In this document: positions 1 through 64,000 of the stretch, piece after piece | Position numbering within the stretch: position 1 is the stretch's first letter | Layout: each line of letters opens with the position of its first letter | NCBI RefSeq assembly: GCF_029227915.1 | Contig: NC_079881.1 | Span: 10,106,001-10,170,000 of the forward strand | Length of the DNA: 64,000 nucleotides | Reading direction: 5' to 3' | Source of the DNA: Hydractinia symbiolongicarpus | Taxonomy: Eukaryota > Cnidaria > Hydrozoa > Anthoathecata > Hydractiniidae | Program-made: the position numbers and the translations under genes | Notes under the pieces: model-generated | Told to the model about the DNA's origin: nothing | The model's input: the letters and a program-made list of their open reading frames with translations, nothing else | The model's database searches: none

Positions 1-59
1 TTTAAAAGCCGCAGTGAATCAAATGTTTGACGCCTATTACAAAACTAGCAACTCAACAA

Positions 60-611
60 TGATTCCGCCGGGCTCGAACCGGGGACCTTGCGCGTGTGAA
101 GCGCACGTGATAACCGCTACACTACGGAATCCAATGAATTTTGGAACCTATGATGAAGGAAAGCAATACAAGGCTAAAATAGCTAGAGAAAAAAGCAAAA
201 ACATGTCGCTTGTTAGTTGCCAGATTCCGTAGTGTAGTGGTTATCACGTGCACTTAACACGTGCAAAGTCCCCGGTTCGAGCCCGGGCGGAATCATTGAT
301 GTTTCTGCGAAGCGAACCTCGGAAGAGCCTCTGTAGGTTCCATGGTGTAATGGTTAGCACTCAGGACTCTGAATCCTGCGATCCGAGTTCAAGTCTCGGT
401 GGAACCTGTGCCGTTAGTTGTGCCTCGGAAGCACCTATTGGGCGTTTGGAAGCAACGGCACTTGAAATATTTTAGTCATTTGCAAAAAGACATTGTAATA
501 ACAACGTTCTTCTGAAATGCATCGGATTAGGGCACAGTGCCTTGTTAGCGCAGTAGGCAGCGCGTCAGTCTCATAATCTGAAGGTCGTGAGTGCGATCCT
601 CAAACAGGGCA
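60..611. tRNA. Unit 1: Val-CAC(-), Val-AAC, Gln-CTG, Met-CAT
   Basis: Val- 60..131 (72 nt, one T-stem C lost); Val+ 223..295; Gln 336..407; Met 539..611. Val+ carries a compensatory anticodon-stem pair change (G30-C40 to A30-T40). Met has T55 changed to G and a T-stem mismatch, so it is doubtful. Confidence 0.93.
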
Positions 612-675
612 AGGCTTTTAAAAGCCGCAGTGAATCAAATGTTTGACGCCTATTACAAAACTAGCAACTCAACAA

Positions 676-1228
676 TGATTCCGCCCGGGCTCGAACCGGG
701 GACCTTGCGCGTGTGAAGCGCACGTGATAACCGCTACACTACAGAATCCAATGAATTTTGGAACCGATGACGAAGGAAAGCAATACAAGGCTAAAACAGC
801 TAGAGAAAAAAGCAAAAACATGTCGCTTGTTAGTTGCCAGATTCCGTAGTGTAGTGGTTATAACGTGCGCCTAACACGCGCAAGGTCCCCGGTTCGAGCC
901 CGGGCGGAATCATTGATGTTTCCGCGAAGCGAACCTCGGAAGAGCCTCTGTAGGTTCGATGGTGTAATGGTTAGCAATCAGGACTCTGAATCTTGCGATC
1001 CGAGTTCAAGTCTCGGTGGAACCTGTGCCGTTAGTTGTGCCTCGAAAGCACCTATTGGGCGTTTGGAAGCAACGGCACTTGAAATATTTTAGTCATTTGC
1101 AAGAAGACATTGTAATAACAACGTTCTTCTGAAATGCATCGGATTAGGGCACAGTGCCTTGTTAGCGCAGTAGGCAGCGCGTCAGTCTCATAATCTGAAG
1201 GTCGTGAGTGCGATCCTCACACAGGGCA
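676..1228. tRNA. Unit 2: Val-CAC(-), Val-AAC, Gln-CTG, Met-CAT
   Basis: Val- 676..748; Val+ 840..912; Gln 953..1024 (acceptor C5 to G mismatch); Met 1156..1228 (T55 to G). Confidence 0.93.
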
Positions 1229-1292
1229 AGGCTTTTAAAAGCCGCAGTGAATCAAATGTTTGACGCCTATTACAAAACTAGCAACTCAACAA

Positions 1293-1845
1293 TGATTCCG
1301 CCCGGGCTCGAACCGGGGACCTTGCGCGTGTGAAGCGCACGTCATAACCGCTACACTACGGAATCCAATGAATTTTGGAACCTATGACGAAGGAAAGCAA
1401 TACAAGGCTAAAATAGCTAGAGAAAAAAGCAAAAACATGTCGGTTGTTAGTTGCCAGATTCCGTAGTGTAGTGGTTATCACGTGCGCTTAACACGCGCAA
1501 GGTCCCCGGTTCGAGCCCGGGCGGAATCATTGATGTTTTCGCGAAGCGAACCTCGGAAGAGCCTCTGTAGGTTCCATGGTGTAATGGTTAGCACTCAGGA
1601 CTCTGAATCCTGCCATCCGAGTTCAAGTCTCGGTGGAACCTGTGCCGTTAGTTGTGCCTCGGAAGCACCTATTGGGCGTTTGGAAGCAACGGCACTTGAA
1701 ATATTTTAGTCATTTGCAAGAAGACATTGTAATAACAACGTTCTTCTGAAATGCATCGGATTAGGGCACAGTGCCTTGTTAGCGCAGTAAGCAGCGCGTC
1801 AGTCCCATAATCTGAAGGTCGTGAGTTCGATCCTCACACAGGGCA
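1293..1845. tRNA. Unit 3: Val-CAC(-), Val-AAC, Gln-CTG, Met-CAT
   Basis: Val- 1293..1365; Val+ 1457..1529; Gln 1570..1641; Met 1773..1845 (U33 to C). A T4 run lies in the Val-Gln spacer. Confidence 0.94.
1773..1845 (+). tRNA. tRNA-Met(CAT) lacking U33 (unit 3)
   Basis: The loop reads CCCATAA: the almost universal U33 before the anticodon is C. The rest of the fold is intact except a D-loop G to A. Decoding is likely impaired. Confidence 0.8.
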
Positions 1846-1909
1846 AGGCTTTTAAAAGCCGCAGTGAATCAAATGTTTGACGCCTATTACAAAACTAGCA
1901 ACTCATTAA

Positions 1910-2462
1910 TGATTCCGCCCGGGCTCGAACCGGGGACCTTGCGCGTGTGAAGCGCACGTGATAACCGCTACACTACGGAATCCAATGAATTTTGGAACCG
2001 ATGACGAAGGAAAGCAATACAAGGCTAAAACAGCTAGAGAAAAAAGCAAAAACATGTCGCTTGTTAGTTGCCAGATTCCGTAGTGTAGTGGTTATCACGT
2101 GCGCTTAACACGCGCAAGGTCCCCGGTTCAAGCCCGGGCGGAATCATTGATGTTTCCGCGAAACGAACCTCGGAAGAGCCTCTGTAGGTTCCTTGGTGTA
2201 ATGGTTAGCAATCAGGACTCTGAATCCTGCGATCCGAGTTCAAGTCTCGGTGGAACCTGTGCCGTTAGTTGTGCCTCGAAAGCACCTATTGGGCGTTTGG
2301 AAGCAACGGCACTTGAAATATTTTAGTCATTTGCAAGAAGACATTGTAATAACAACGTTCTTCTGAAATGCATCGGATTAGGGCACAGTGCCTTGTTAGC
2401 GCAGTAAGCAGCGCGTCAGTCTCATAATCTGAAGGTCGTGAGTTCGATCCTCACACAGGGCA
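1910..2462. tRNA. Unit 4: Val-CAC(-), Val-AAC, Gln-CTG, Met-CAT
   Basis: Val- 1910..1982; Val+ 2074..2146; Gln 2187..2258 (CCTTGG and CAATCAGG variant, shared with units 5, 10, 11); Met 2390..2462. Confidence 0.95.
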
Positions 2463-2526
2463 AGGCTTTTAAAAGCCGCAGTGAATCAAATGTTTGACGC
2501 CTATTACAAAACTAGCAACTCAACAA

Positions 2527-4377: not shown

Positions 4378-4930
4378 TGATTCCGCCCGGGCTCGAACCG
4401 GGGACATTGCGCGTGTGAAGCGCACGTGACACCCGCTACACTACGGAATCCAATGAATTTTGGAACCTATGACGAAGGAAAGCAATACAAGGCTAAAATA
4501 GCTAGAGAAAAAAGCAAAAACATGTCGCTTGTTAGTTGCCAGATTCCGTAGTGTAGTGGTTATCACGTGCGATTAACACGCGCAAGGTCCCCGGTTCGAG
4601 CCCGGGCGGAATCATTGATGTTTCCGCGAAGCAAACCTCGGAAGAGCCTCCGTAGGTTCCATAGTGTAATGGTTAGCACTCAGGACTCTAAATCCTGCCA
4701 TCCGAGTTCAAGTCTCGGTGGAACCTGTGCCGTTAGTTGTGCCTCGGAAGCACCTATTGGGCGTTTGGAAGCAACGGCACTTGAAATATTTTAGTCATTT
4801 GCAAGAAGACATTGTAATAACAACGTTCTTCTGAAATGCATCGGATTAGGGCACAGTGCCTTGTTAGCGCAGTAAGCAGCGCGTCAGTCTCATAATCTGA
4901 AGGTCGTGAGTTCGATCCTCACACAGGGCA
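4378..4930. tRNA. Unit 8: Val-CAC(-), Val-AAC, Gln-body CTA, Met-CAT
   Basis: Val- 4378..4450 (D-arm changes); Val+ 4542..4614; Gln body 4655..4726 with anticodon CTA; Met 4858..4930. Confidence 0.94.
4655..4726 (+). tRNA. tRNA-Gln body with anticodon CTA (unit 8)
   Basis: The anticodon loop is CTCTAAA, so the anticodon is CTA, complementary to the UAG stop codon. Acceptor and T-arm are intact; one D-side base is changed (CATAGTG). It is a candidate amber suppressor if expressed, or a neutral variant in a redundant array. Confidence 0.85.
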
Positions 4931-9866: not shown

Positions 9867-9930
9867 AGGCTTTTAAAAGCCGCAGTGAATCAAATGTTTG
9901 ACGCCTATTACAAAACTAGCAACTCAACAA

Positions 9931-9984
9931 TGATTCCGGCGCTTAACACGCGCAAGGTCCCCGGTTCGAGCCCGGGCGGAATCA
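9931..9984 (+). pseudogene. D-arm-less Val remnant from Val-Val fusion (unit 17)
   Basis: A 183-bp deletion joins the first bases of the minus-strand Val locus (TGATTCCGG) to the plus Val anticodon arm. Because the acceptor strands of the inverted Val genes read alike on plus, the product keeps a full acceptor stem, anticodon AAC and T-arm but no D-arm or A box. About 53 nt. Confidence 0.85.
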
Positions 9985-10300
9985 TTGATGTTTCCGCGAA
10001 GCGAACCTCGGAAGAGCCTCTGTAGGTTCCATGGTGTAATGGATAGCACTCAGGACTCTGAATCCTGCGATCCGAGTTCAAGTCTCGGTGGAACCTGTGC
10101 CGTTATTTGTGCCTCGGAAGCACCTATTGGGCGTTTGGAAGCAACGGCACTTCAAATATTTTAGTCATTTGCAAGAAGACATTGTATTAAGAACGTTCTT
10201 CTGAAATGCATCGGATTAGGGCACAGTGCCTTGTTAGCGCAGTAGGCAGCGCGTCAGTCTCATAATCTGAAGGTCGTGAGTTCGATCCTCACACAGGGCA
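9931..10300. tRNA. Unit 17 (deleted): Val remnant, Gln-CTG, Met-CAT
   Basis: A 183-bp deletion removed Val-, the divergent spacer and the 5' half of Val+. Fused Val remnant 9931..9984; Gln 10025..10096; Met 10228..10300. Confidence 0.93.
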
Positions 10301-10364
10301 AGGCTTTTAAAAGCCGCAGTGAATCAAATTTTTGACGCCTATTACAAAACTAGCAACTCAACAA

Positions 10365-12768: not shown

Positions 12769-12832
12769 AGGCTTTTAAAAGCCGCAGTGAATCAAATGTT
12801 TGACGCCTATTACAAAACTAGCAACTCAACAA

Positions 12833-13383
12833 TGATTCCGCCCGGGCTCGAACCGGGGACCTTGCGCGTGTGAAGCGCACGTGATAACCGCTACACTACG
12901 GAATCCAAGGCATTTTGGAACCGATGACGAAGGAAGCAATACAAGGCTAAAATAGCTAGAGAAAAAAGCAAAAACATATCGCTTGTTAGTTGCCAGATTC
13001 CGTAGTGTAGTGGTTATCACGTGCGTTTAACACGCGCAAGGTCCCCGGTTCGAGCCCGGGCGGAATCATTGATGTTTTCGCGAAGCGAACCTCGGAAGAG
13101 CCTCTGTAGGTTCCATGGTGTAATGGTTAGCACTCAGGACTCTGAATCCTGCGATCCGAGTTCAAGTCTCGGTGGAACCTGTGCCGTTAGTTGTGCCTCG
13201 GAAGCACCTATTGGGCGTTTGGAAGCAACGGCACTTGAAATATTTTAGCATTTGCAAAAAGACATTGTAATAACAACGTTCTTCTGAAATGCATCGGATT
13301 AGGGCACAGTGCCTTGTTAGCGCAGTAGGCAGCGCGTCAGTCTCATAATCTGAAAGTCGTGAGTTCGATCCTCACACAGGGCA
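12833..13383. tRNA. Unit 22: Val-CAC(-), Val-AAC, Gln-CTG, Met-CAT
   Basis: Val- 12833..12905; Val+ 12996..13068; Gln 13109..13180; Met 13311..13383. T4 run in the Val-Gln spacer. Confidence 0.95.
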
Positions 13384-13447
13384 AGGCTTTTAAAAGCTGC
13401 AATGAATCAAGTGTTTGACGCCTATTACAAAACTAGCAACTCAACAA

Positions 13448-13999
13448 TGATTCCGCCCGGGCTCGAACCGGGGACCTTGGGCGTGTGAAGCGCACGTGAT
13501 AACCGCTACACTACGGAATCCAATGAATTTTGGAACCGATGACGAAGGAAAGCAATACAAGGCTAAAATAGCTAGAGAAAAAGCAAAAACATGTCGCTTG
13601 TTAGTTGCCAGATTCCGTAGTGTAGTGGTTATCACGTGCGCTTTACACGCGCAAGGTCCCTGGTTCGAGCCCGGGCGGAATCATTGATGTTTCCGCGAAT
13701 CGAACCTCGGAAGGGCCTCTGTAGGTTCCATGGTGTAATGGTTAGCACTCAGGACTCTGAATCCTGCGATCCGAGTTCAAGTCTCGGTGGAACCTGTGCC
13801 GTTATTTGTGCCTCGGAAGCACCTATTGGGTGTTTGGAAGCAACGGCACTTCAAATATTTTAGTCATTTGCAAGAAGACATTGTAATAACAACGTTCTTC
13901 TGAAATGCATCAGATTAGGGCACAGTGCCCTGTTAGCGCAGTAGGCAGCGCGTCAGTCTCATAATCTGAAGGTCGTGAGTTCGATCCTCACACAGGGCA
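13448..13999. tRNA. Unit 23: Val-CAC(-), Val-TAC, Gln-CTG, Met-CAT
   Basis: Val- 13448..13520; Val+ 13611..13683 (first TAC copy from the left; one T-stem C to T); Gln 13724..13795; Met 13927..13999 (C4 acceptor). Confidence 0.95.
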
Positions 14000-14063
14000 A
14001 GGCTTTTAAAAGCCGCAGTGAATCAAATGTTTGACGCCTATTACAAAACTAGCAACTCAACAA

Positions 14064-14616
14064 TGATTCCGGCCGGGCTCGAACCGGGGACCTTGCGCGT
14101 GTGAAGCGCACGTGATAACCGCTACACTACGGAATCCAATGAATTTTGGAACCTATGACGAAGGAAAGAAATACAAGGCTAAAATAGTTAGAGAAAAAAG
14201 CAAAAACATGTCGCTTTTTAGTTGCCAGATTCCGTAGTATAGTGGTTATCACGTGCGCTTAACACGTGCAAGGTCCGCGGTTCGAGCCCGGGCGGAATCA
14301 TTGATGTTTCCGCGAAGCGAACCTCGGAAGAGCCTCTGTAGGTTCCATGGTGTAATGGTTAGCACTCAGGACTCTGAATCCTGCGATCCGAGTTCAAGTC
14401 TCGGTGGAACCTGTGCCGTTAGTTGTGCCTCGGAAGCACCTATTGGGCGTTTGGAAGCAACGGCACTTGAAATATTTTATTCATTTGCAAGAAGACATTG
14501 TAATAACAACGTTCTTCTGAAATGCATCGGATTAGTGCACAGTGCCTTGTTAGCGCAGTAGGCAGCGCGTCAGTCTCATAATCTGAAAGTCGTGAGTTCG
14601 ATCCTCACACAGGTCA
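14064..14616. tRNA. Unit 24: Val-CAC(-), Val-AAC, Gln-CTG, Met-CAT
   Basis: Val- 14064..14136; Val+ 14228..14300; Gln 14341..14412; Met 14544..14616 (3' acceptor G to T mismatch). Confidence 0.94.
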
Positions 14617-14680
14617 AGGCTTTTAAAAGCTGCAATGAATCAAGTGTTTGACGCCTATTACAAAACTAGCAACTCAACAA

Positions 14681-15233
14681 TGATTCCGGCCGGGCTCGAA
14701 CCGGGGACCTTGCGCGTGTGAAACGCACGTGATAACCGCTACACTACGGAATCCAATGAATTTTGGAACCTATGACGAAGAAAAGAAATACAAGGCTAAA
14801 ATAGCTAGAGAAAAAAGCAAAAACATGTCGCTTTTTAGTTGCCAGATTCCGTAGTATAGTGGTTATCACGTGCGCGTAACACGCGCAAGGTCCCCGGTTC
14901 GAGCCCGGGCGGAATCATTGATGTTTCCGCGAAGCGAACCTCGGAAGAGCCTCTGTAGGTTCCATCGTGTAATGGTTAGCACTCAGGACTCTGAATCCTG
15001 CGATCCGAGTTCAAGTCCTGGTGGAACCTGTGCCGTTAGTTGTGCCTCGGAAGCACCTATTGGGCGTTTGGAAGCAACGGCACTTGAAATATTTTAGTCA
15101 TTTGCAAGAAGACATTGTAATAACAACGTTCTTCTGAAATGCATCGGATTAGGGCACAGTGCCTTGTTAGCGCAGTAGGCAGCGCGTCAGTCTCATAATC
15201 TGAAAGTCGTGAGTTCGATCCTCACACAGGTCA
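14681..15233. tRNA. Unit 25: Val-CAC(-), Val-AAC, Gln-CTG, Met-CAT
   Basis: Val- 14681..14753; Val+ 14845..14917 (loop GTAACAC); Gln 14958..15029; Met 15161..15233 (acceptor mismatch). Tandem twin of unit 26. Confidence 0.94.
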
Positions 15234-15297
15234 AGGCTTTTAAAAGCTGCAATGAATCAAGTGTTTGACGCCTATTACAAAACTAGCAACTCAACAA

Positions 15298-15850
15298 TGA
15301 TTCCGGCCGGGCTCGAACCGGGGACCTTGCGCGTGTGAAACGCACGTGATAACCGCTACACTACGGAATCCAATGAATTTTGGAACCTATGACGAAGAAA
15401 AGAAATACAAGGCTAAAATAGCTAGAGAAAAAAGCAAAAACATGTCGCTTTTTAGTTGCCAGATTCCGTAGTATAGTGGTTATCACGTGCGCGTAACACG
15501 CGCAAGGTCCCCGGTTCGAGCCCGGGCGGAATCATTGATGTTTCCGCGAAGCGAACCTCGGAAGAGCCTCTGTAGGTTCCATGGTGTAATGGTTAGCACT
15601 CAGGACTCTGAATCCTGCGATCCGAGTTCAAGTCCTGGTGGAACCTGTGCCGTTAGTTGTGCCTCGGAAGCACCTATTGGGCGTTTGGAAGCAACGGCAC
15701 TTGAAATATTTTAGTCATTTGCAAGAAGACATTGTAATAACAACGTTCTTCTGAAATGCATCGGATTAGGGCACAGTGCCTTGTTAGCGCAGTAGGCAGC
15801 GCGTCAGTCTCATAATCTGAAAGTCGTGAGTTCGATCCTCACACAGGGCA
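15298..15850. tRNA. Unit 26: Val-CAC(-), Val-AAC, Gln-CTG, Met-CAT
   Basis: Val- 15298..15370; Val+ 15462..15534 (loop GTAACAC); Gln 15575..15646; Met 15778..15850. Confidence 0.94.
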
Positions 15851-16006
15851 AGGCTTTTAAAAGCTGCAATGAATCAAGTGTTTGACGCCTATTACAAAAC
15901 TAGCAACTCAACAATGATTCCGCCCGGGCTCGAACCGGGGATCTTGCGCGTGTGAAGCGCACGTGATAACCGCTACACTACGGAATCCAATGAATTTTGG
16001 AACCTA

Positions 16007-16026
16007 TTCGCGCCCGGGCGGAATCA
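16007..16026 (+). pseudogene. 3' stub of tRNA-Val (unit 27)
   Basis: Only the T-loop, 3' T-stem and 3' acceptor strand remain after a 125-bp deletion from the divergent spacer into Val+. Confidence 0.85.
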
Positions 16027-16066
16027 TTGATGTTTCCGCGAAGCAAATCTCGGAAGAGCCTCTGTA

Positions 16067-16138
16067 GGTTCCATGGTGTAATGGTTAGCACTCAGGACTC
16101 TAAATCCTGCGATCCGAGTTCAAGTCTCGGTGGAACCT
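16067..16138 (+). tRNA. tRNA-Gln body with anticodon CTA (unit 27)
   Basis: Anticodon CTA in an otherwise consensus Gln body, next to a deleted Val gene. Duplicated together with that deletion in unit 34. Confidence 0.87.
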
Positions 16139-16269
16139 GTGCCGTTATTTGTGCCTCGGAAGCACCTATTGGGCGTTTGGAAGCAACGGCACATCAAATA
16201 TTTTAGTCATTTGCAAGAAGACATTGTATTAAGAACGTTCTTCTGAAATGCATCGGAGTAGGGCACAGT

Positions 16270-16342
16270 GCCTTGTTAGCGCAGTAGGCAGCGCGTCAGT
16301 CACATAATCTGAAGGTCGTGAGTTCGATCCTCACATAGGGCA
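16270..16342 (+). tRNA. tRNA-Met(CAT) lacking U33 (unit 27)
   Basis: The loop reads CACATAA, with U33 changed to A. The acceptor also has a C-to-T change (ATAGGGC). Confidence 0.78.
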
Positions 16343-16570
16343 AGGCTTTTAAAAGCCGCAGTGAATCAAATGTTTGACGCCTATTACAAAACTAGCAACT
16401 CAACAATGATTCCGCCCGGGCTCGAACCGGGGACCTTGGGCGTGTGAAGCGCACGTGATAACCGCTACACTACGGAATCCAATCAAATTTGGAACCTATG
16501 ACGAAGGAAAGCAATACAAGGCTAAAATAGCTAGAGAAAAAAGCAAAAACATGTCGCTTGTTAGTTGCCA

Positions 16571-16643
16571 GATTTCGGTGTGTAGTTGTTATCACGTGCG
16601 CTTTACACGCGCAAGGTCCCCGGTTCGAGCCCGGGCGGAATCA
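16571..16643 (+). pseudogene. tRNA-Val(TAC) with lost U8 and D-loop G (unit 28)
   Basis: Reads GATTTCGGTGTGTAGTTG at the 5' end: U8 becomes G and one of the conserved D-loop GG pair is T. Tertiary folding and the A box should suffer. Same in unit 35. Confidence 0.7.
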
Positions 16644-16886
16644 TTGATGTTTCCGCGAAGCGAACCTCGGAAGAGCCTCTGTAGGTTCCATGGTGTAATG
16701 GTTAGCACTCAGGACTCTGAATCCTGCGATCCGAGTTCAAGTCTCGGTGGAACCTGTGCCGTTAGTTGTGCCTCGGAAGCACCTATTGGGCGTTTGGAAG
16801 CAACGGCACTTCAAATATTTCAGTCATTTGCAAGAAGACATTGTAATAACAACGTTCTTCTGAAATGCATCGGATTAGAGCACAGC

Positions 16887-16957
16887 GCCTTGTTAGCGCA
16901 GTAGGCAGCAGGTAATTCTCATAATCTGAAGGTCGTGAGTTCGATCCACACAGGGCA
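16887..16957 (+). pseudogene. Degenerate tRNA-Met, 71 nt (unit 28)
   Basis: Anticodon-stem damage as in units 19 and 21, plus a further 2-nt loss in the 3' T-stem strand. Confidence 0.82.
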
Positions 16958-17021
16958 AGGCTTTTAAAAGCCGCAGTGAATCAAATGTTTGACGCCTATT
17001 ACAAAACTAGCAACTCAACAA

Positions 17022-17573
17022 TGATTCCGCCCGGGCTCGAACCGGGGACCTTGCGCGTGTGAAGCGCACGTGATAACCGCTACAATACGGAATCCAAGGC
17101 ATTTTTGGAACCGATGACGAAGGAAGCAATACAAGGCTAAAATAGCTAGAGAAAAAAGCAAAAACATATCGCTTGTTAGTTGCCAGATTCCGTAGTGTAG
17201 TGGTTATCACGTGCGTTTAACACGCGCAAGGTCCCCGGTTCGAGCCCGGGCGGAATCATTGATGTTTCCGCGAAGCGAACCTCGGAAGAGCCTCTGTAAG
17301 TTCCATGGTGTAATGGTTAGCACTCAGGACTCTGAATCCTGCGATCCGAGTTCAAGTCTCGGTGGAACCTGTGCCGTTAGTTGTGCCTCGGAGGCACCTA
17401 TTGGGCGTTTGGAAGCAACGGCACTTGAAATATTTTAGCATTTGCAAAAAGACATTGTAATAACAACGTTCTTCTGAAATGCATCGGATTAGGGCACAGT
17501 GCCTTGTTAGCGCAGTAGGCAGCGCGTCAGTCTCATAATCTGAAAGTCGTGAGTTCGATCCTCACACAGGGCA
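17022..17573. tRNA. Unit 29: Val-CAC(-), Val-AAC, Gln-CTG, Met-CAT
   Basis: Val- 17022..17094; Val+ 17186..17258; Gln 17299..17370 (G1 to A); Met 17501..17573. Copy of unit 22. Confidence 0.94.
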
Positions 17574-17637
17574 AGTCTTTTAAAAGCTGCAATGAATCAA
17601 GTGTTTGACGCCTATTACAAAACTAGCAACTCAACAA

Positions 17638-18189
17638 TGATTCCGCCCGGGCTCGAACCGGGGACCTTGGGCGTGTGAAGCGCACGTGATAACCGCTACA
17701 CTACGGAATCCAATGAATTTTGGAACCGATGACGAAGGAAAGCAATACAAGGCTAAAATAGCTAGAGAAAAAGCAAAAACATGTCGCTTGTTAGTTGCCA
17801 GATTCCGTAGTGTAGTGGTTATCACGTGCGCTTTACACGCGCAAGGTCCCTGGTTCGAGCCCGGGCGGAATCATTGATGTTTCTGCGAATCGAACCTCGG
17901 AAGGGCCTCTGTAGGTTCCATGGTGTAATGGTTAGCACTCAGGACTCTGAATCCTGCGATCCGAGTTCAAGTCTCGGTGGAACCTGTGCCGTTATTTGTG
18001 CCTCGGAAGCACCTATTGGGCGTTTGGAAGCAACGGCACTTCAAATATTTTAGTCATTTGCAAGAAGACATTGTAATAACAACGTTCTTCTGAAATGCAT
18101 CAGATTAGGGCACAGTGCCCTGTTAGCGCAGCAGGCAGCGCGTCAGTCTCATAATCTGAAGGTCGTGAGTTCGATCCTCACACAGGGCA
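17638..18189. tRNA. Unit 30: Val-CAC(-), Val-TAC, Gln-CTG, Met-CAT
   Basis: Val- 17638..17710; Val+ 17801..17873; Gln 17914..17985; Met 18117..18189. Copy of unit 23. Confidence 0.95.
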
Positions 18190-18253
18190 AGGCTTTTAAA
18201 AGCCGCAGTGAATCAAATGTTTGACGCCTATTACAAAACTAGCAACTCAACAA

Positions 18254-18805
18254 TGATTCCGGCCGGGCTCGAACCGGGGACCTTGCGCGTGTGAAGCGCA
18301 CGTGATAACCGCTACACTACGGAATCCAATGAATTTTGGAACCTATGACGAAGGAAAGAAATACAAGGCTAAAATAGTTAGAGAAAAAAGCAAAAACATG
18401 TCGCTTTTTAGTTGCCAGATTCCGTAGTATAGTGGTTATCACGTGCGCTTAACACGCGCAAGGTCCGCGGTTCGAGCCCGGGCGGAATCATTGATGTTTC
18501 CGCGAAGCGAACCTCGGAAGAGCCTCTGCAGGTTCCATGGTGTAATGGTTAGCACTCAGGACTCTGAATCCTGCGATCCGAGTTCAAGTCTCGGTGGAAC
18601 CTGTGCCGTTAGTTGTGCCTCGGAAGCACCTATTGGGCGTTTGAAAGCAACGGCACTTGAAATATTTTAGCATTTGCAAAAAGACATTGTAATAACAACG
18701 TTCTTCTGAAATGCATCGGATTAGGGCACAGTGCCTTGTTAGCGCAGTAGGCAGCGCGTCAGTCTCATAATCTGAAAGTCGTGAGTTCGATCCTCACACA
18801 GGGCA
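18254..18805. tRNA. Unit 31: Val-CAC(-), Val-AAC, Gln-CTG, Met-CAT
   Basis: Val- 18254..18326; Val+ 18418..18490; Gln 18531..18602; Met 18733..18805. Copy of unit 24. Confidence 0.95.
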
Positions 18806-18869
18806 AGGCTTTTAAAAGCTGCAATGAATCAAGTGTTTGACGCCTATTACAAAACTAGCAACTCAACAA

Positions 18870-19421
18870 TGATTCCGCCCGGGCTCGAACCGGGGACCTT
18901 GGGCGTGTGAAGCGCACGTGATAACCGCTACACTACGGAATCCAATGAATTTTGGAACCGATGACGAAGGAAAGCAATACAAGGCTAAAATAGCTAGAGA
19001 AAAAGCAAAAACATGTCGCTTGTTAGTTGCCAGATTCCGTAGTGTAGTGGTTATCACGTGCGCTTTACACGCGCAAGGTCCCTGGTTCGAGCCCGGGCGG
19101 AATCATTGATGTTTCCGCGAATCGAACCTCGGAAGGGCCTCTGTAGGTTCCATGGTGTAATGGTTAGCACTCAGGACTCTGAATCCTGCGATCCGAGTTC
19201 AAGTCTCGGTGGAACCTGTGCCGTTATTTGTGCCTCGGAAGCACCTATTGGGCGTTTGGAAGCAACGGCACTTCAAATATTTTAGTCATTTGCAAGAAGA
19301 CATTGTAATAACAACGTTCTTCTGAAATGCATCAGATTAGGGCACAGTGCCCTGTTAGCGCAGTAGGCAGCGCGTCAGTCTCATAATCTGAAGGTCGTGA
19401 GTTCGATCCTCACACAGGGCA
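18870..19421. tRNA. Unit 32: Val-CAC(-), Val-TAC, Gln-CTG, Met-CAT
   Basis: Val- 18870..18942; Val+ 19033..19105; Gln 19146..19217; Met 19349..19421. Copy of unit 30, 1,232 bp away. Confidence 0.95.
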
Positions 19422-19485
19422 AGGCTTTTAAAAGCCGCAGTGAATCAAATGTTTGACGCCTATTACAAAACTAGCAACTCAACAA

Positions 19486-20037
19486 TGATTCCGGCCGGGC
19501 TCGAACCGGGGACCTTGCGCGTGTGAAGCGCACGTGATAACCGCTACACTACGGAATCCAATGAATTTTGGAACCTATGACGAAGGAAAGAAATACAAGG
19601 CTAAAATAGTTAGAGAAAAAAGCAAAAACATGTCGCTTTTAGTTGCCAGATTCCGTAGTATAGTGGTTATCACGTGCGCTTAACACGCGCAAGGTCCGCG
19701 GTTCGAGCCCGGGCGGAATCATTGATGTTTCCGCGAAGCGAACCTCGGAAGAGCCTCTGTAGGTTCCATGGTGTAATGGTTAGCACTCAGGACTCTGAAT
19801 CCTGCGATCCGAATTCAAGTCTCGGTGGAACCTGTGCCGTTAGTTGTGCCTCGGAAGCACCTATTGGGCGTTTGGAAGCAACGGCACTTGAAATATTTTA
19901 GTCATTTGCAAGAAGACATTGTAATAACAACGTTCTTCTGAAATGCATCGGATTAGGGCACAGTGCCTTGTTAGCGCAGTAGGCAGCGCGTCAGTCTCAT
20001 AATCTGAAAGTCGTGAGTTCGATCCTCACACAGGGCA
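19486..20037. tRNA. Unit 33: Val-CAC(-), Val-AAC, Gln-CTG, Met-CAT
   Basis: Val- 19486..19558; Val+ 19649..19721; Gln 19762..19833; Met 19965..20037. Confidence 0.95.
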
Positions 20038-20193
20038 AGGCTTTTAAAAGCTGCAATGAATCAAGTGTTTGACGCCTATTACAAAACTAGCAACTCAACA
20101 ATGATTCCGCCCGGGCTCGAACCGGGGATCTTGCGCGTGTGAAGCGCACGTGATAACCGCTACACTACGGAATCCAATGAATTTTGGAACCTA

Positions 20194-20213
20194 TTCGAGC
20201 CCGGGCGGAATCA
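20194..20213 (+). pseudogene. 3' stub of tRNA-Val (unit 34)
   Basis: Same breakpoint as unit 27, differing by one base in the T loop (TTCGAGC here, TTCGCGC in unit 27). Proves the deletion was copied by duplication. Confidence 0.85.
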
Positions 20214-20253
20214 TTGATGTTTCCGCGAAGCAAACCTCGGAAGAGCCTCTGTA

Positions 20254-20325
20254 GGTTCCATGGTGTAATGGTTAGCACTCAGGACTCTAAATCCTGCGAT
20301 CCGAGTTCAAGTCTCGGTGGAACCT
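20254..20325 (+). tRNA. tRNA-Gln body with anticodon CTA (unit 34)
   Basis: Anticodon CTA in an otherwise consensus Gln body; the second copy produced by the roughly 4.19-kb higher-order duplication. Confidence 0.87.
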
Positions 20326-20593
20326 GTGCCGTTATTTGTGCCTCGGAAGCACCTATTGGGCGTTTGGAAGCAACGGCACATCAAATATTTTAGTCATTTG
20401 CAAGAAGACATTGTATTAAGAACGTTCTTCTGAAATGCATCGGAGTAGGGCACAGTGCCTTGTTAGCGCAGTAGGCAGCGCGTCAGTCTCATAATCTGAA
20501 GGTCGTGAGTTCGATCCTCACATAGGGCAAGGCTTTTAAAAGCCGCAGTGAATCAAATGTTTGACGCCTATTACAAAACTAGCAACTCAACAA

Positions 20594-21146
20594 TGATTCC
20601 GCCCGTGCTCGAACCGGGGACCTTGGGCGTGTGAAGCGCACGTGATAACCGCTACACTACGGAATCCAATCAAATTTGGAACCTATGACGAAGGAAAGCA
20701 ATACAAGGCTAAAATAGCTAGAGAAAAAAGCAAAAACATGTCGCTTGTTAGTTGCCAGATTTCGGTGTGTAGTTGTTATCACGTGCGCTTTACACGCGCA
20801 AGGTCCCCGGTTCGAGCCCGGGCGGAATCATTGATGTTTCCGCGAAGCGAACCTCGGAAGAGCCTCTGTAGGTTCCATGGTGTAATGGTTAGCACTCAGG
20901 ACTCTGAATCCTGCGATCCGAGTTCAAGTCTCGGTGGAACCTGTGCCGTTATTTGTGCCTCGGAAGCACCTATTGGGCGTTTGGAAGCAACGGCACTTCA
21001 AATATTTTAGTCATTTGCAAGAAGACATTGTAATAACAACGTTCTTCTGAAATGCATCAGATTAGGGCACAGTGCCTTGTTAGCGCAGTAGGCAGCGCGT
21101 CAGTCTCATAATCTGAAGGTCGTGAGTTCGATCCTCACACAGGGCA
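20594..21146. tRNA. Unit 35: Val-CAC(-), degenerate Val-TAC, Gln-CTG, Met-CAT
   Basis: Val- 20594..20666; Val+ 20758..20830 (U8 lost, as in unit 28); Gln 20871..20942; Met 21074..21146 (intact, unlike unit 28). Confidence 0.93.
20758..20830 (+). pseudogene. tRNA-Val(TAC) with lost U8 and D-loop G (unit 35)
   Basis: Same changes as unit 28, 4,187 bp downstream of it. Confidence 0.7.
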
Positions 21147-21210
21147 AGGCTTTTAAAAGCCGCAGTGAGTCAAATGTTTGACGCCTATTACAAAACTAGC
21201 AACTGAACAA

Positions 21211-26136: not shown

Positions 26137-26689
26137 TGATTCCACCCGAGCTCGAACCGGGGACCTTGCGCGTGTGAAGCGCACGTGATAACCGCTACAC
26201 TACGTAATCCAATGAATTTTGGAACCTATGACGAAGGAAAGCAATACAAGGCTAAAATAGCTAGAGAAAAAAGCAAAAACATGTCGCTTGTTAGTTGCCA
26301 GATTCCGTTGTGTAGTGGTTATCACGTGCGCTTTACACGCGCAAGGTCCCCGGTTCGAGCCCGGGCGGAATCATTGATGTTTCCGCGAAGCGAACCTCGG
26401 AAGAGCCTCTGTAGGTTCCATGGTGTAATGGTTAGCACTCAGGACTCGGAATCCTGCGATCCGAGTTCAAGTCTCGGTGGAACCTGTGCCGTTATTTGTG
26501 CCTCGGAAGCACCTATTGGGCGTTTGGAAGCAACGGCGCTTCAAATATTTTAGTCATTTACAAGAAGACATTGTAATAACAACGTTCTTCTGAAATGCAT
26601 CGGATTAGGGCACAGTGCCTTGTTAGTGCAGTAGGCAGCGCGTCAGTCTCATAATCTGAAGGTCGTGAGTTCGATCCTCACACAGGGCA
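26137..26689. tRNA. Unit 44: Val-CAC(-), Val-TAC, Gln-body CGG, Met-CAT
   Basis: Val- 26137..26209; Val+ 26301..26373; Gln body 26414..26485 (anticodon CGG); Met 26617..26689. Confidence 0.94.
26414..26485 (+). tRNA. tRNA-Gln body with anticodon CGG (unit 44)
   Basis: T35 to G gives loop CTCGGAA and anticodon CGG (Pro codon CCG) in an otherwise consensus Gln body. Shared by units 44, 62, 66 and 67, so the variant has been multiplied by array turnover. Confidence 0.85.
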
Positions 26690-34710: not shown

Positions 34711-34774
34711 AGCCTTTTAAAAGCCGCAGTGAATCAAATGTTTGACGCCTATTACAAAACTAGCAACTCAACAA

Positions 34775-35327: not shown

Positions 35328-35391
35328 AGGCTTTTAAAAGCCGCAGTGAATCAAATGTTTGACGCCTATTACAGAACTAGCAACTCAACAA

Positions 35392-35944: not shown

Positions 35945-36008
35945 AGGCTTTTAAAAGCCGCAGTGAATCAAATGTTTGACGCCTATTACAGAACTAGCAA
36001 CTCAACAA

Positions 36009-36561: not shown

Positions 36562-36625
36562 AGGCTTTTAAAAGCCGCAGTGAATCAGATGTTTGACGCC
36601 TATTACAAAACTAGCAACTCAACAA

Positions 36626-37178: not shown

Positions 37179-37243
37179 AGGCTTTTAAAAGCCGGCAGTG
37201 AATCAAATGTTTGACGCCTATTACAAATCTAGCAACTCAACAA

Positions 37244-37796
37244 TGATTCCGCCCGGGCTCGAACCGGGGACCTTGCGCGTGTGAAGCGCACGTGATAACC
37301 GCTACACTACGTAATCCAATGAATTTTGGAACCTATGACGAAGGAAAGCAATACAAGGCTAAAATAGCTAGAGAAAAAAGCAAAAACATGTCGCTTGTTA
37401 GTTGCCAGATTCCGTTGTGTAGTGGTTATCACGTGTGCTTTACACGCGCAAGGTCCCCGGTTCGAGCCCGGGCGGAATCATTGATGTTTCCGCGAAGCGA
37501 ACCTCGGAAGAGCCTCTGTAGGTTCCATGTTGTAATGGTTAGCACTCAGGACTCGGAATCCTGCGATCCGAGTTCAAGTCTCGGTGGAACCTGTGCCGTT
37601 ATTTGTGCCTCGGAAGCACCTATTGGGCGTTTGGAAGCAACGGCGCTTCAAATATTTTAGTCATTTGCAAGAAGACATTGTAATAACAACGTTCTTCTGA
37701 AATGCATCGGATTAGGGCACAGTGCCTTGTTAGCGCAGTAGGCAGCGCGTCAGTCTCATAATCTGAAGGTCGTGAGTTCGATCCTCACACAGGGCA
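37244..37796. tRNA. Unit 62 (D'): Val-CAC(-), Val-TAC, Gln-body CGG, Met-CAT
   Basis: Val- 37244..37316; Val+ 37408..37480; Gln body 37521..37592 (CGG); Met 37724..37796. Confidence 0.93.
37521..37592 (+). tRNA. tRNA-Gln body with anticodon CGG (unit 62)
   Basis: Anticodon CGG; also one change at the D-arm edge (CATGTTG). Identical variant in unit 66, 2,469 bp downstream. Confidence 0.83.
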
Positions 37797-37860
37797 AGCC
37801 TTTTAAAAGCCGCAGTAAATCAAATGTTTGACGCCTATTACAAAACTAGCAACTCAACAA

Positions 37861-38413
37861 TGATTCCGCCCGGGCTCGAACCGGGGACCTTGCGCGTGTG
37901 AAGCGCACGTGATAACCGCTACACTACGGAATCCAATGAATTTTGGAACCGATGACGAAGGACAGCAATACAAGGCTAGAATAGCTAGAGAAAAAAGCAA
38001 AAACATGTCGCTTGTTAGTTTCCAGATTCTGTAGTGTAGTGGTTATCACGTGCGCTTAACACGCGCAAGGTCCCCGGTTCGAGCCCGGGCGGAATCATTG
38101 ATGTTTCCGCGAAGCGAACCTCGGAAGAGCCTCTGTAGGTTCCATGGTGTAATGGTTAGCACTCAGGACTCTGCATCCTGCGATCCGAGTTCAAGTCTCG
38201 GTGGAACTTGTGTTGTTAGTTGTGCCTCGGAAGCACCTATTGGGCGTTTGGAAGCAACGGCACTTCAAATATTTTAGTCATTTGCAAGAAGACATTGTAA
38301 TAACAACGTTCTTCTGAAATGCATCGGATTAGGGCACAGTGCCTTGTTAGCGCAGTAGGCAGCGCGTCAGTCTCATAATCTAGAGGTCGTGAGTTCGATC
38401 CTCACACAGGGCA
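37861..38413. tRNA. Unit 63 (A): Val-CAC(-), Val-AAC, Gln-CTG, Met-CAT
   Basis: Val- 37861..37933; Val+ 38025..38097; Gln 38138..38209 (C37); Met 38341..38413. Near-identical to unit 58. Confidence 0.94.
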
Positions 38414-38477
38414 AGGCTTTTAAAAGCCGCAGTGAATCAAATGTTTGACGCCTATTACAGAACTAGCAACTCAACAA

Positions 38478-39030
38478 TGATTCCGCCCGGGCTCGAACCG
38501 GGGACCTTGCGCGTGTGAAGCGCACGTGATAACCGCTACACTACGGAATCCAATGATTTTTGGAACTTATGACGAAGGAAAGCAATACAAGGCTAAAATA
38601 GCTAGAGAAAAAAGCAAAAACATGTCGCTTGTTAGGTGCCAGATTCCGTAGTGTAGTGGTTATCACGTGCGCTTTACACGCGCAAGGTCCCCGGTTCGAG
38701 CCCGGGCGGAATCATTGATGTTTCCGCGAAGCGAACCTCGGAAGAGCCTCTGTAGGTTCCATGGTGTAATGGTTAGCACTCAGGACTCTGAATCCTGCGA
38801 TCCGAGTTCAAGTCTCGGTGGAACCTGTGCCGTTATTTGTGCCTCGGAAGCACCTATAGGGCGTTTGGAAGCAACGGCACCTCAAATATTTTAGTCATTT
38901 GCAAGAAGACATTCTAATAACAACGTTCTTCTGAAATGCATCGGATTAGGGCACAGTGCCTTGTTAGCGCAGTAGGCAGCGCGTCAGTCTCATAATCTGA
39001 AGGTCGTGAGTTCGATCCTCACACAGGGCA
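38478..39030. tRNA. Unit 64 (B): Val-CAC(-), Val-TAC, Gln-CTG, Met-CAT
   Basis: Val- 38478..38550; Val+ 38642..38714; Gln 38755..38826; Met 38958..39030. Confidence 0.95.
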
Positions 39031-39094
39031 AGGCTTTTAAAAGCCGCAGTGAATCAGATGTTTGACGCCTATTACAAAACTAGCAACTCAACAA

Positions 39095-39647
39095 TGATTC
39101 CGCCCGGGCTCGAACTGGGGACCTTGGGCGTGTGAAGCGCACGTGATAACCGCTACACTACGGAATCCAATGAATTTTGGAGCCGATGACGAAGGAAAGC
39201 AATACAAGGCTAAAATACCTAGAAAAAAAAGCAAAAACATGTCGCTTGTTAGTTGCCAGATTCCGTAGTGTAGTGGTTATCACGTGCGCTTAACTCGCGC
39301 AAGATCCCCGGTTCGAGCCCGGGCGGAATCATTGATGTTTCCGCGAAGCGAACCTCGGAAGAGCCTCTGTAGATTCCATGGTGTAATGGTTAGCACTCAG
39401 GACTCTGAATCCTGCGAACCGAGTTCAAGTCTCGGCGGAACCTGTGCCGTTAGTTGTGCGTTAGAAGCACCTATTGGGCGTTTGGAAGCAACGGCACTTG
39501 AAATATTTTAGTCATTTGCAAGAAGACATTGTAATAAAAACGTTCTTCTGAAATGCATCGGATTAGGGCACAGTGCCTTGTTAGCGCAGTAGGCAGCGCG
39601 TCAGTCTCATAATCTGAAGGTCGTAAGTTCGATCCTCACACAGGGCA
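39095..39647. tRNA. Unit 65 (C): Val-CAC(-), Val-AAC, Gln-CTG, Met-CAT
   Basis: Val- 39095..39167; Val+ 39259..39331; Gln 39372..39443; Met 39575..39647. Near-identical to unit 61. Confidence 0.93.
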
Positions 39648-39712
39648 AGGCTTTTAAAAGCCGGCAGTGAATCAAATGTTTGACGCCTATTACAAATCTA
39701 GCAACTCAACAA

Positions 39713-40265
39713 TGATTCCGCCCGGGCTCGAACCGGGGACCTTGCGCGTGTGAAGCGCACGTGATAACCGCTACACTACGTAATCCAATGAATTTTGGAA
39801 CCTATGACGAAGGAAAGCAATACAAGGCTAAAATAGCTAGAGAAAAAAGCAAAAACATGTCGCTTGTTAGTTGCCAGATTCCGTTGTGTAGTGGTTATCA
39901 CGTGTGCTTTACACGCGCAAGGTCCCCGGTTCGAGCCCGGGCGGAATCATTGATGTTTCCGCGAAGCGAACCTCGGAAGAGCCTCTGTAGGTTCCATGTT
40001 GTAATGGTTAGCACTCAGGACTCGGAATCCTGCGATCCGAGTTCAAGTCTCGGTGGAACCTGTGCCGTTATTTGTGCCTCGGAAGCACCTATTGGGCGTT
40101 TGGAAGCAACGGCGCTTCAAATATTTTAGTCATTTGCAAGAAGACATTGTAATAACAACGTTCTTCTGAAATTCATCGGATTAGGGCACAGTGCCTTGTT
40201 AGCGCAGTAGGCAGCGCGTCAGTCTCATAATCTGAAGGTCGTGAGTTCGATCCTCACACAGGGCA
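39713..40265. tRNA. Unit 66 (D'): Val-CAC(-), Val-TAC, Gln-body CGG, Met-CAT
   Basis: Val- 39713..39785; Val+ 39877..39949; Gln body 39990..40061 (CGG); Met 40193..40265. Near-identical to unit 62. Confidence 0.93.
39990..40061 (+). tRNA. tRNA-Gln body with anticodon CGG (unit 66)
   Basis: Anticodon CGG with the CATGTTG change; higher-order copy of the unit 62 gene. Confidence 0.83.
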
Positions 40266-40493
40266 AAGCTTTTAAAAGCCGCAGTAAATCAAATGTTTGA
40301 CGCCTATTACAAAACTAGCAACTCAACAATGATTCCGCCCGAGCTCGAACAGGGGACCTTGCGCGTGTGAAGCGCACGTGATAACCGCTACACTACGTAA
40401 TCCAATGAATTTTGGAACCTATGACGAAGGAAACCAATACAAGGCTAAAATAGCTAGAGAAAAAAGCAAAAACATGTCGCTTGTTAGTTGCCA

Positions 40494-61796: not shown

Positions 61797-61860
61797 AGGC
61801 TTTTAAAAGCCGCAGGGAATCAAATGTTTGACGCCTATTACAGAACTAGCAACTCAACAA

Positions 61861-62413
61861 TGATTCCGCCCGGGCTCGAACCGGGGACCTTGCGCGTGTG
61901 AAGCGCACGTGATAACCGCTACACTACGGAATCCAATGATTTTTGGAACCTATGACGAAGGAAAGCAATACAAGGCTAAAATAGCTAGAGAAAAAAGCAA
62001 AAACATGTCGCTTGTTAGGTGCCAGATTCCGTTGTGTAGTGGTTATCACGTGCGCTTTACACGCACAAGGTCCCCGGTTCGAGCCCGGGCGGAATCATTG
62101 ATGTTTCCGCGAAGCGAACCTCGGAAGAGCCTCTGTAGGTTCCATGGTGTAATGGTTAGCACTCAGGACTCTGCATCCTGCGATCCGAGTTCAAGTCTCG
62201 GTGGACCCTGTGCCGTTAGTTGTGCCTCGGAAGCACCTATTTGGCGTTTGGAAGCAACGGCACTTCAAATATTTTAGTCATTTGCAAGAAGACATTGTAA
62301 TAACAACGTTCTTCTGAAATGCATCGGATTAGGGCACAGTGCCTTGTTAGCGCAGTAGGCAGCGCGTCAGTCTCATAATCTAGGGGTCGTGAGTTCGATC
62401 CTCACACAGGACA
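61861..62413. tRNA. Unit 102: Val-CAC(-), Val-TAC, Gln-CTG, Met-CAT
   Basis: Val- 61861..61933; Val+ 62025..62097; Gln 62138..62209 (C37, acceptor mismatch); Met 62341..62413. The Val half copies unit 98 while the Gln is of unit 91 type. Confidence 0.93.
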
Positions 62414-62477
62414 AGGCTTTTAAAAGCCGCAGTGAATCAAATTTTTGACGCCTATTACAAAACTAGCAACTCAACAA

Positions 62478-63002
62478 TGATTCCGCCCGGGCTCGAACCG
62501 GGGACCTTGCGCGTGTGAAGCGCACGTGATAACCGCTACAATACGGAATACAATGAATTTTGGAACCTATGACGAAGGAAAGCAATGCAAGGCTAAAATA
62601 GCTAGAGAAAAAAGCAAAATCATGTCGCTTGTTAGTTGCCAGATTCCGTAGTGTAGTGGTTATCACGTGCGCTTTACAAGCGCAAGGTCCCGGGTTCGAG
62701 CCCCGGCGGAATCATTGATGTTTGTAGGTTCCATGGTGTATTGGTTAGCACTCAGGACTCTGAATCCTGCGATCCGAGTTCAAGTCTCGGTGGAACCTGT
62801 GCCGTTATTTGTGCCTCGGAAGCACCTATTGGGCGTTTGGAAGCAACGGCACTTCAAATATTTTAGTCATTTGCAAGAAGACATTGTAATAACAACGTTC
62901 TTCTGAAATGCATCAGATTAGGGCACAGTGCCTTGTTAGCGCAGTAGGCAGCGCGTCAGTCTCATGATCTGAAGGCCGTGAGTTCGATCCTCTCACAGGG
63001 CA
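62478..63002. tRNA. Unit 103: Val-CAC(-), Val-TAC, Gln-CTG, Met-CAT; short spacer
   Basis: Val- 62478..62550; Val+ 62642..62714; Gln 62727..62798, 12 bp after Val with only T3 between; Met 62930..63002. Confidence 0.93.
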
Positions 63003-63066
63003 AGGCTTTTAAAATCCGCAGTGAATCAAATGTTTGACGCCTATTACAAAACTAGCAACTCAACAA

Positions 63067-63621
63067 TGATTCCGCCCGGGCTCGAACCGGGGACCTTGCG
63101 CGTGTGAAGCGCACGTGATAACCGCTACACAACGGAATCCAAGGAATTTTGGAACCTATGACGAAGGAAAGCAATACAAGGCTAAAATAGCTAGAGAAAA
63201 AAGCAAAAACATGTCGCTTGTTAGGTGCCAGATTCCGTTGTGTAGTGGTTATCACGTGCGCTTTACACGCGCAAGGTCACCGGTTCGAGCCCGGGCGGAA
63301 TCATTGATGTTTCCGCGAAGCGAACCTCGGAAGAGCCTCTGTAGGTTCCATGGTGTAATGGTTAGCACTCAGGACTCTGAATCCTGCGATCCGAGTTCAA
63401 GTCTCGGTGGAACCTGTGCCGTTAGTTGTGCCTCAGAAGCACCTATTGGGCGTTTGGAAGCAACGGCACTTGAAATATTTTAGTCATTTGCAAGAAGACA
63501 TTGTAATAACAACGTTCTTCTGAAATGCATCGGATTAGGGCACACAGTGCCTTGTTAGCGCAGTAGGCAGCGCGTCAGTCTCATAATCTGAAGGTCGTGA
63601 GTTCGATCCTCACACAGGGCA
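63067..63621. tRNA. Unit 104: Val-CAC(-), Val-TAC, Gln-CTG, Met-CAT
   Basis: Val- 63067..63139; Val+ 63231..63303; Gln 63344..63415; Met 63549..63621 (2-bp CA insertion just upstream). Confidence 0.94.
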
Positions 63622-63685
63622 AGGCTTTTAAAAGCCGCAGTGAATCAAATGTTTGACGCCTATTACAAAACTAGCAACTCAACAA

Positions 63686-64000
63686 TGATTCCGCCCCGGC
63701 TCGAACCGGGACCTTGCGCGTGTGAAGCGCACGTGATAACCGCTAGACTATAGAATCCAATGAATTTTGGAACCTATGACGAAGGAAAGCAATGCAAGGC
63801 TAAAATAGCTAGAGAAAAAAGCAAAAACATGTCGCTTGTTAGTTGCCAGATTCCGTAGTGTAGTGGTTATCACGTGCGCTTTACACGTGCAAGGTCCCCG
63901 GTTCGAGCCCGGGCGGAATCATTGATGTTTCCGCGAAGCGAACCTCGGAAGAGCCTCTGTAGGTTCCATGGTGTAATGTTTAGCACTCAGGACTCTGAAT
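63686..64000. tRNA. Unit 105 (partial): Val-CAC(-), Val-TAC, Gln cut by window end
   Basis: Val- 63686..63757 (72 nt, acceptor changes); Val+ 63849..63921; Gln 63962..64000 runs off the window within the anticodon arm. Met lies outside. Confidence 0.92.

What the first reader, a model, noticed from the sequence alone, without database searches (positions are those of the whole stretch)
1..64000. A tRNA megasatellite: about 418 tRNA loci in one 64-kb tandem array
Seen: 105 units of about 617 bp, each a four-gene tRNA cassette, with no other gene. Known: tandem tRNA repeats exist in some eukaryotes (for example Entamoeba, Xenopus), but this Val-Val-Gln-Met cassette is not one I recognise. Inferred: it may serve high tRNA supply, chromatin structure, or be a selfish satellite built of genes.
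Basis: partly seen in the sequence, partly recalled or inferred. Interest (0 to 1): 0.9.

Follow-up and report, generated by a model that had tools for sequence, protein, structure and literature searches.

The report
Decaying tRNA-gene satellite in a hydroid
One chromosome of a small colonial sea animal, very probably the hydroid Hydractinia symbiolongicarpus, carries about 0.7 million bases of one four-tRNA-gene cassette repeated about a thousand times; such arrays are already reported in this species, but the copies here mutate as freely as the DNA between them, so the array is built of genes yet evolves like satellite DNA.

Summary
In detail: 105 units (usual length 617 bp) in one orientation, four tRNA genes each (Val-CAC on the minus strand; Val-AAC/TAC, Gln-CTG, Met-CAT on the plus strand); 418 gene positions, 403 called by ARAGORN. 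The window lies inside an array of about 706 kb on a chromosome of a 481-Mb genome, very probably Hydractinia symbiolongicarpus. Tandem tRNA arrays in that species are published (PMC11067881), so the kind is known. What I did not see in the texts I read is how the copies evolve. tRNA genes vary at least as much as spacers; 117 of 248 variants break a stem, 114 expected at random; 2 pair changes are compensated against 277 broken. A separate sample of 160 units outside the window agrees; phage tRNAs tested similarly show strong compensation. Units form local higher-order repeats, a sign of unequal exchange. Best reading: a satellite made of tRNA genes, copied and homogenised by recombination, single copies not visibly selected, tRNA supply (if it matters) kept by redundancy. 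Whether the array is transcribed, or is the only source of these Val and Met tRNAs, is open.

The parts
1..64000 (+). Interior of the tRNA-cassette array (105 units, the last one cut by the window end); both array edges lie outside the window
   Evidence: edges
1237..1853 (+). Example full unit (unit 3, 617 bp)
1293..1365 (-). tRNA-Val(CAC) of unit 3
1457..1529 (+). tRNA-Val(AAC) of unit 3; TAC in about half of the units. The two Val consensus genes agree at 71 of 73 positions and lie head to head
1569..1642 (+). tRNA-Gln(CTG) of unit 3
1772..1846 (+). tRNA-Met(CAT) of unit 3; elongator type by resemblance (recalled), followed by a T4 run in 104 of 104 units
29783..40273 (+). Units 50-66: four rounds of a four-unit higher-order repeat with one extra unit
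12777..21154 (+). Units 22-35: seven-unit block repeated once (six of seven in-register pairs at 0.5-1.8% divergence, the seventh at 3.6%)
15859..16350 (+). Unit 27, 125-bp deletion shared with unit 34 (20046-20537), removing the 5' part of the plus-strand Val gene
9875..10308 (+). Unit 17, 434 bp, Val genes largely missing
4654..4727 (+). Gln-type gene with anticodon CTA (also at 16066, 20253, 33817, 53557): 5 of 105 units
26413..26486 (+). Gln-type gene with anticodon CGG (also at 37520, 39989, 40604): 4 of 105 units

Best explanation
It is a satellite DNA whose monomer is a four-tRNA-gene cassette. Shown: the array is about 0.71 Mb of one unit, mostly in one orientation; units are duplicated in local blocks; substitutions fall in the tRNA genes at least as often as in the spacers, break stems as often as chance predicts, are almost never compensated, and reach many copies even when they break a stem. 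Inferred: an intact cassette was amplified recently compared with the mutation rate; unequal crossing-over and conversion between neighbours copy and delete units and carry defects along by drift; the consensus still folds into four good tRNAs because the founder was good and about half of the copies are still intact, not because each copy is kept by selection. The intact part may well be transcribed by RNA polymerase III and may supply the cell, but with about a thousand copies no single one matters.
For: Variable sites 185 of 295 in genes against 161 of 322 in spacers; rate ratio 1.53 after matching base and CpG class. Stem-breaking alleles 58 of 128 seen once (58.7 expected) and 59 of 120 shared (55.5 expected); 95% bound of 19% on the share of such alleles removed. 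2 compensated against 277 broken pair cells. Sample of 160 units outside the window: 50 of 112 and 59 of 126 (51.8 and 58.2 expected), 2 against 287 cells, three of four genes. Positive control on T4-like phage tRNAs: 46 of 51 stem changes compensated, 5 left against 43 expected. Nearest relative within ten units for 80 of 104 units, shuffled mean 19, maximum 38. A stem-breaking change in 29 Val-CAC copies.
Against: 203 of 418 gene positions are defect-free by my criteria, slightly above the 188.5 +/- 13.4 of the relocation test, though P=0.16. For variants in 6 or more copies genes are slightly less variable than spacers (19 of 295 against 27 of 322, p=0.44), and outside the window the gene excess is not significant (p=0.19). 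Weak selection (up to about a fifth of stem-breaking alleles) cannot be excluded. Exact searches found Val and Met genes of this sequence only inside the two C7 arrays, which speaks for some use of the array. No expression or read data were available.
Confidence: 0.7

Rival explanations
1. A working gene bank like rDNA: the array is kept for high tRNA supply, with selection and concerted evolution keeping copies functional.
For: The consensus folds into four canonical tRNAs; 203 of 418 positions are defect-free; T-runs follow Met in 104 of 104 units; no stand-alone Val or Met copy of the same sequence found by exact patterns.
Against: No constraint on single copies in three tests and in an outside sample. 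A stand-alone tRNA-Gln gene matching the consensus at 73 of 74 positions exists on C12. Weak selection on the total number of good copies is not excluded.
Confidence: 0.18
2. A structural element (centromere, boundary or replication-pause region) in which the tRNA genes matter only as binding sites for TFIIIC or Pol III.
For: tDNA clusters are linked to boundaries and fork pausing in other organisms (PMC2888827 and PMC4041453); the array is one block in one chromosome interior.
Against: Binding-site function would predict conserved A and B boxes; gene positions are not less variable than spacers. Boxes were not tested as a separate class. No chromatin data.
Confidence: 0.08
3. An assembly artefact: a short array expanded, or errors read as variants.
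For: Arrays of this length are hard to assemble; no reads could be checked.
Against: Many variants are shared by blocks of units in a higher-order pattern, and substitutions, not small indels, dominate. The genome paper reports tRNA arrays also from a differently made assembly of H. echinata (PMC11067881 section 14). The exact unit number stays unverified.
Confidence: 0.04

Closest known systems
Tandem ncRNA and tRNA arrays of Hydractinia symbiolongicarpus and H. echinata (Genome Res. 2024, PMC11067881)
   Same: Very probably the same species; [quoted passage not shown]
   Different: The section speaks of tens or even hundreds of copies and functional ncRNAs; here about a thousand units in one array, higher-order repeats and neutral decay. 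This array may be in its supplementary tables, which I could not read.
Entamoeba tRNA gene arrays (PMC2652664; passages and section 29 read)
   Same: Tandem units with several tRNA genes (1 to 5 there, 4 here), many copies.
   Different: There most copies are uniform and no clear pseudogenes were seen; almost all tRNA genes are in arrays; short tandem repeats lie between genes in E. histolytica and E. dispar. Here copies differ by 3.75% on average and about half carry defects.
Human 1q23.3 tRNA VNTR (PMC4041453; passages read)
   Same: Tandem repeat with several tRNA genes per unit, units about 98% alike.
   Different: 7.3-kb units, 9 to 43 per allele, CTCF-bound; here 617-bp units.
Nippostrongylus brasiliensis tRNA repeats (PMC5765664; passages read)
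   Same: About 90 to 150 tandem copies of a tRNA gene with a species-specific spacer.
   Different: One gene per unit there; no test of selection in the passages read.
Amplified 5S rDNA of pikes (PMC5437419; abstract and section 18 read)
   Same: A Pol III gene amplified to satellite scale.
   Different: There genes are far more homogeneous than spacers (2.5 against 12.8 SNPs per 100 bp at 5% frequency or more); here 6.4 against 8.4 per 100 bp at 6 copies or more, not significant.

Membership tests
Hydractinia tandem tRNA arrays (PMC11067881) | Genome is a Hydractinia | tested here: met
   Inference: three hits to a neighbouring GPCR ORF are named H. symbiolongicarpus on a contig of 33,314,500 bases, the length of C7
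Hydractinia tandem tRNA arrays (PMC11067881) | Evenly spaced tandem copies with near-identical spacers | tested here: met
Hydractinia tandem tRNA arrays (PMC11067881) | Listed in the paper's supplementary tables | not testable with these tools
Entamoeba-type tRNA arrays | Tandem units of 1 to 5 tRNA genes in many copies | tested here: met
Entamoeba-type tRNA arrays | Copies uniform, without clear pseudogenes | tested here: not met
   mean divergence 3.75%; 215 of 418 positions carry at least one defect by my criteria
Entamoeba-type tRNA arrays | Short tandem repeats between genes (E. histolytica and E. dispar only) | tested here: not met
   Tandem Repeats Finder lists 3 rows only, periods 434 and 492
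Satellite DNA with higher-order repeats | Long head-to-tail array of one monomer | tested here: met
Satellite DNA with higher-order repeats | Local higher-order repeats and similarity of neighbours | tested here: met
Satellite DNA with higher-order repeats | Monomer sequence without visible constraint | tested here: met
   weak constraint not excluded
Satellite DNA with higher-order repeats | Heterochromatic or centromeric location | not testable with these tools
   no chromatin or cytogenetic data
Functional tRNA gene set under purifying selection | Stem changes rare or compensated | tested here: not met
   2 compensated against 277 broken pair cells, 2 against 287 outside; phage control 46 of 51 compensated
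Functional tRNA gene set under purifying selection | Expression as mature tRNA | not testable with these tools
   no RNA data

The most novel reading that the evidence does not exclude
The array is the genome's main or only source of these particular Val and Met tRNAs, yet no single copy is under measurable selection: an essential translation function kept purely by collective redundancy inside a drifting satellite, in which anticodon variants (Gln bodies that would read UAG stops or Pro codons) are copied along with the rest and are either silent or cause low-level misreading.
Probability: 0.25. Interest if true: 0.7.

Novelty: already known. Interest (0 to 1): 0.45.

Why it matters
Tandem tRNA arrays are reported in this species and their significance is called unclear. 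The neutral pattern gives a direct answer for single copies and a testable question for the whole array: how much of it is transcribed, and what becomes of suppressor-like and mis-sense anticodons in an animal studied for its stem cells. It also warns that tRNA gene counts in such genomes overstate the working set.

Tried and rejected
Transcription-associated mutation as cause of extra variation in genes: no strand asymmetry in the coding-strand spectrum (12 comparisons, all p above 0.2); left open. Conversion between the two inverted Val genes: 23 shared variants, 23.2 expected. Rfam microRNA matches MIR869 and MIR8562 lie below their gathering scores; I put them down to the inverted Val-Val pair. 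Decay at the edge: the leftmost units still match the consensus at about 98%. Decay gradient along the window: none (Spearman 0.02). Exact searches for the cassette in viral contigs and bacterial and archaeal genomes, blastn in phages and plasmids: no match; such collections could hardly hold an animal satellite. A protein search with a chance ORF of the array gave 35 hits; the six that I read, four of them also aligned, match it only over a translated tRNA-Gln gene. C3 array: 10 units only, 9 of 20 alleles break stems (8.3 expected), variable sites 19 of 463 in genes and 41 of 839 in spacers, p=0.58; too few to conclude, and its loci were chosen by best tRNA score. ARAGORN's TTA 'Stop' calls in the Val gene read the loop one base off: the alignment shows no TTA anticodon there, while the CTA in Gln is real. 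Other papers opened for passages without use in the argument: PMC7919458, PMC9526063, PMC9112765.
Full report
Observation. The window is one tandem array from end to end. Anchored on a spacer word it holds 105 units, all on the + strand, 68 of 104 spacings exactly 617 bp and 93 of 104 between 615 and 619. The consensus unit carries Val-CAC on the minus strand and Val-TAC/AAC, Gln-CTG and Met-CAT on the plus strand. ORFs listed from 130 aa up are three, of 149 aa each.

Where it is. The genome tool, after ten unanswered tries, placed the window at C7:10,106,001-10,170,000 of a 480.9-Mb genome in 76 contigs. Eleven of eleven 10-kb pieces sampled between 9.70 and 10.38 Mb outside the window hold the same unit, and their full-unit matches are all on +. 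The left edge is sharp, inside a unit, at about 9,678,063; the right edge lies between 10,384,000 and 10,385,501. That is about 706-707 kb, 1,144-1,147 units of 617 bp if uninterrupted, which I sampled but did not read throughout. An exact 25-base spacer word occurs 860 times forward and 21 times reverse in the genome; it is in about 75% of sampled units, which gives an estimate of 1,172 units, so most of them are probably in this one array. One reverse copy of the word lies at C7:10,234,917, inside the array span. A stretch of the same unit in the opposite orientation, 95.8% identical to the consensus over a full unit, lies near the far end of C7 at 33.205 Mb. In 154.5 kb of sampled C7 outside the array ARAGORN finds no tRNA. 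Another tRNA array type, consensus unit 1,302 bp (Asp, Lys, Ala, Leu, Met, Ala), lies at several places on C3. The genome-wide tRNA search had 49,105 first-look candidates, of which 63 were scored.

Organism. I take the genome to be that species, a hydrozoan cnidarian.

Is it constrained? Three tests. (1) Density: 185 of 295 tRNA sites and 161 of 322 spacer sites vary (p=0.0016); with base and CpG classes matched, once-seen variants are 1.53 times commoner in genes (permutation p=0.003; 18 of 617 circular shifts, the unshifted one included, reach it). Without four truncated units it is 175 of 295 against 157 of 322 (p=0.010); for variants in at least 2 copies 106 against 99 (p=0.20); for at least 6 copies 19 against 27 (p=0.44). 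So genes are not clearly less variable; whether they are more variable is less sure. (2) Structure: 58 of 128 once-seen alleles break a stem pair, 58.7 expected; 59 of 120 shared alleles, 55.5 expected. Two pair cells are compensated against 277 broken. The 95% bound on the share of stem-breaking alleles removed is 19%. (3) Whole genes: 203 of 418 positions pass my criteria (stems, eight invariant bases, anticodon, no gap); relocating each variant at random within its gene gives 188.5 +/- 13.4 (P=0.16).

Controls. A separate sample of 160 units from the 11 outside pieces (160 of 169 intervals, the others dropped for length; three of the four genes, the fourth left out because withheld letters cut its sample) gives 50 of 112 (51.8 expected) and 59 of 126 (58.2 expected), with 2 compensated and 287 broken cells; variable sites are 156 of 220 against 211 of 322 (p=0.19). 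As positive control, tRNAs of seven T4-like phage loci (eight families present in at least four loci; a simple 2:1 transition weighting in place of the array's own spectrum) show 51 stem changes among 113 alleles, 46 of them compensated in their carriers, leaving 5 against 43 expected. These are differences between phages, not within one array, but they show that the test sees constraint.

How it spreads. Mean divergence between units is 3.75%. Eighty of 104 units have their nearest relative within ten units (500 shuffles: mean 19, maximum 38). Units 50-66 form four rounds of a four-unit repeat with one extra unit; units 22-28 recur as 29-35, six of the seven pairs at 0.5-1.8% divergence, and units 27 and 34 share a 125-bp deletion. 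This is what unequal exchange between neighbours gives. Defects travel with it: a stem-breaking C5>A change in Val-CAC is in 29 copies. A Gln body with anticodon CTA is in 5 of 105 units and with CGG in 4 of 105; outside the window CTA is in 1 of 160 and CGG in 0 of 160. If charged with Gln these would read UAG stops or Pro codons; nothing here shows that they are expressed.

Expression. Units keep a T4 run after Met (104 of 104), after Gln (92 of 104) and, on the minus strand, after Val-CAC (89 of 104). The consensus has none between Val and Gln, so a joint Val-Gln transcript is likely; that is inference.

Other sources. The Gln 3' half with a next base other than the array's occurs 5 times genome-wide: 3 in the array, one on C12 and one on C13. 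The C12 gene matches the array consensus at 73 of 74 called positions, the difference being the last called base, which I take to be flank; its flanks are unrelated to the array. The C13 gene matches at 72 of 74. For Val, 2 places have a non-T next base, one in each C7 array, and 18 have TT followed by a base other than G, all 18 inside the main array. For Met, 1 place, in the array. The patterns were exact and did not cover every flank, and some genome letters are withheld, so absence of other genes is not shown.

Literature. The Hydractinia genome paper (PMC11067881; [quoted passage not shown] The array as a kind is therefore already known. In ten paper searches and the passages read I saw no analysis of selection or higher-order repeats in such tRNA arrays of Hydractinia; supplementary files were not readable, and this very array may be listed there. 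Contrasts: Entamoeba arrays, uniform and without clear pseudogenes (PMC2652664, passages and section 29); pike 5S, genes about five times less variable than spacers (PMC5437419, abstract and section 18); large tDNA clusters in Nematostella and teleosts (PMC2888827, passages and sections 6 and 8); Nippostrongylus (PMC5765664, passages); human 1q23.3 (PMC4041453, passages).

Verdict. A real, very long tRNA-gene satellite in a species where such arrays are already reported. The added result is that its copies decay as if unselected. Mechanism: amplification and local homogenisation by unequal exchange (supported by the higher-order repeats), with tRNA supply kept, if needed, by redundancy (inferred).

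Noticed in passing
L008-L015 (contig C3, about 3.35, 8.54, 8.93 and 8.96 Mb): A different tRNA array, consensus unit 1,302 bp with Asp, Lys, Ala, Leu, Met and Ala genes, at several places of one chromosome.
   Followed up: partly
L064 (C7:33,204,800-33,205,600): The window's cassette in the opposite orientation, 95.8% identical, about 0.1 Mb from the end of the same contig.
   Followed up: partly
window, plus-strand Val gene of each unit, position 34: A/T polymorphism (47 A, 56 T) makes two isoacceptors, AAC and TAC, from one gene position.
   Followed up: no
L062 and L063: Two stand-alone tRNA-Gln genes on C12 and C13 share similar flanks, so one looks like a duplicate of the other; the C12 one lies near a tRNA-Arg(TCT).
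   Followed up: no
unit columns 1-56 (spacer before the Val-CAC gene): Fewest once-seen variants of any long region: 8 in 56 sites, against 90 in 322 for all spacer sites; unexplained.
   Followed up: no
P0001 (protein database hit, contig of 1,105 bases): A chance ORF that translates a tRNA-Gln gene twice, 99 residues apart, with the segment between also repeated: another tandem tRNA repeat in an unnamed organism.
   Followed up: no
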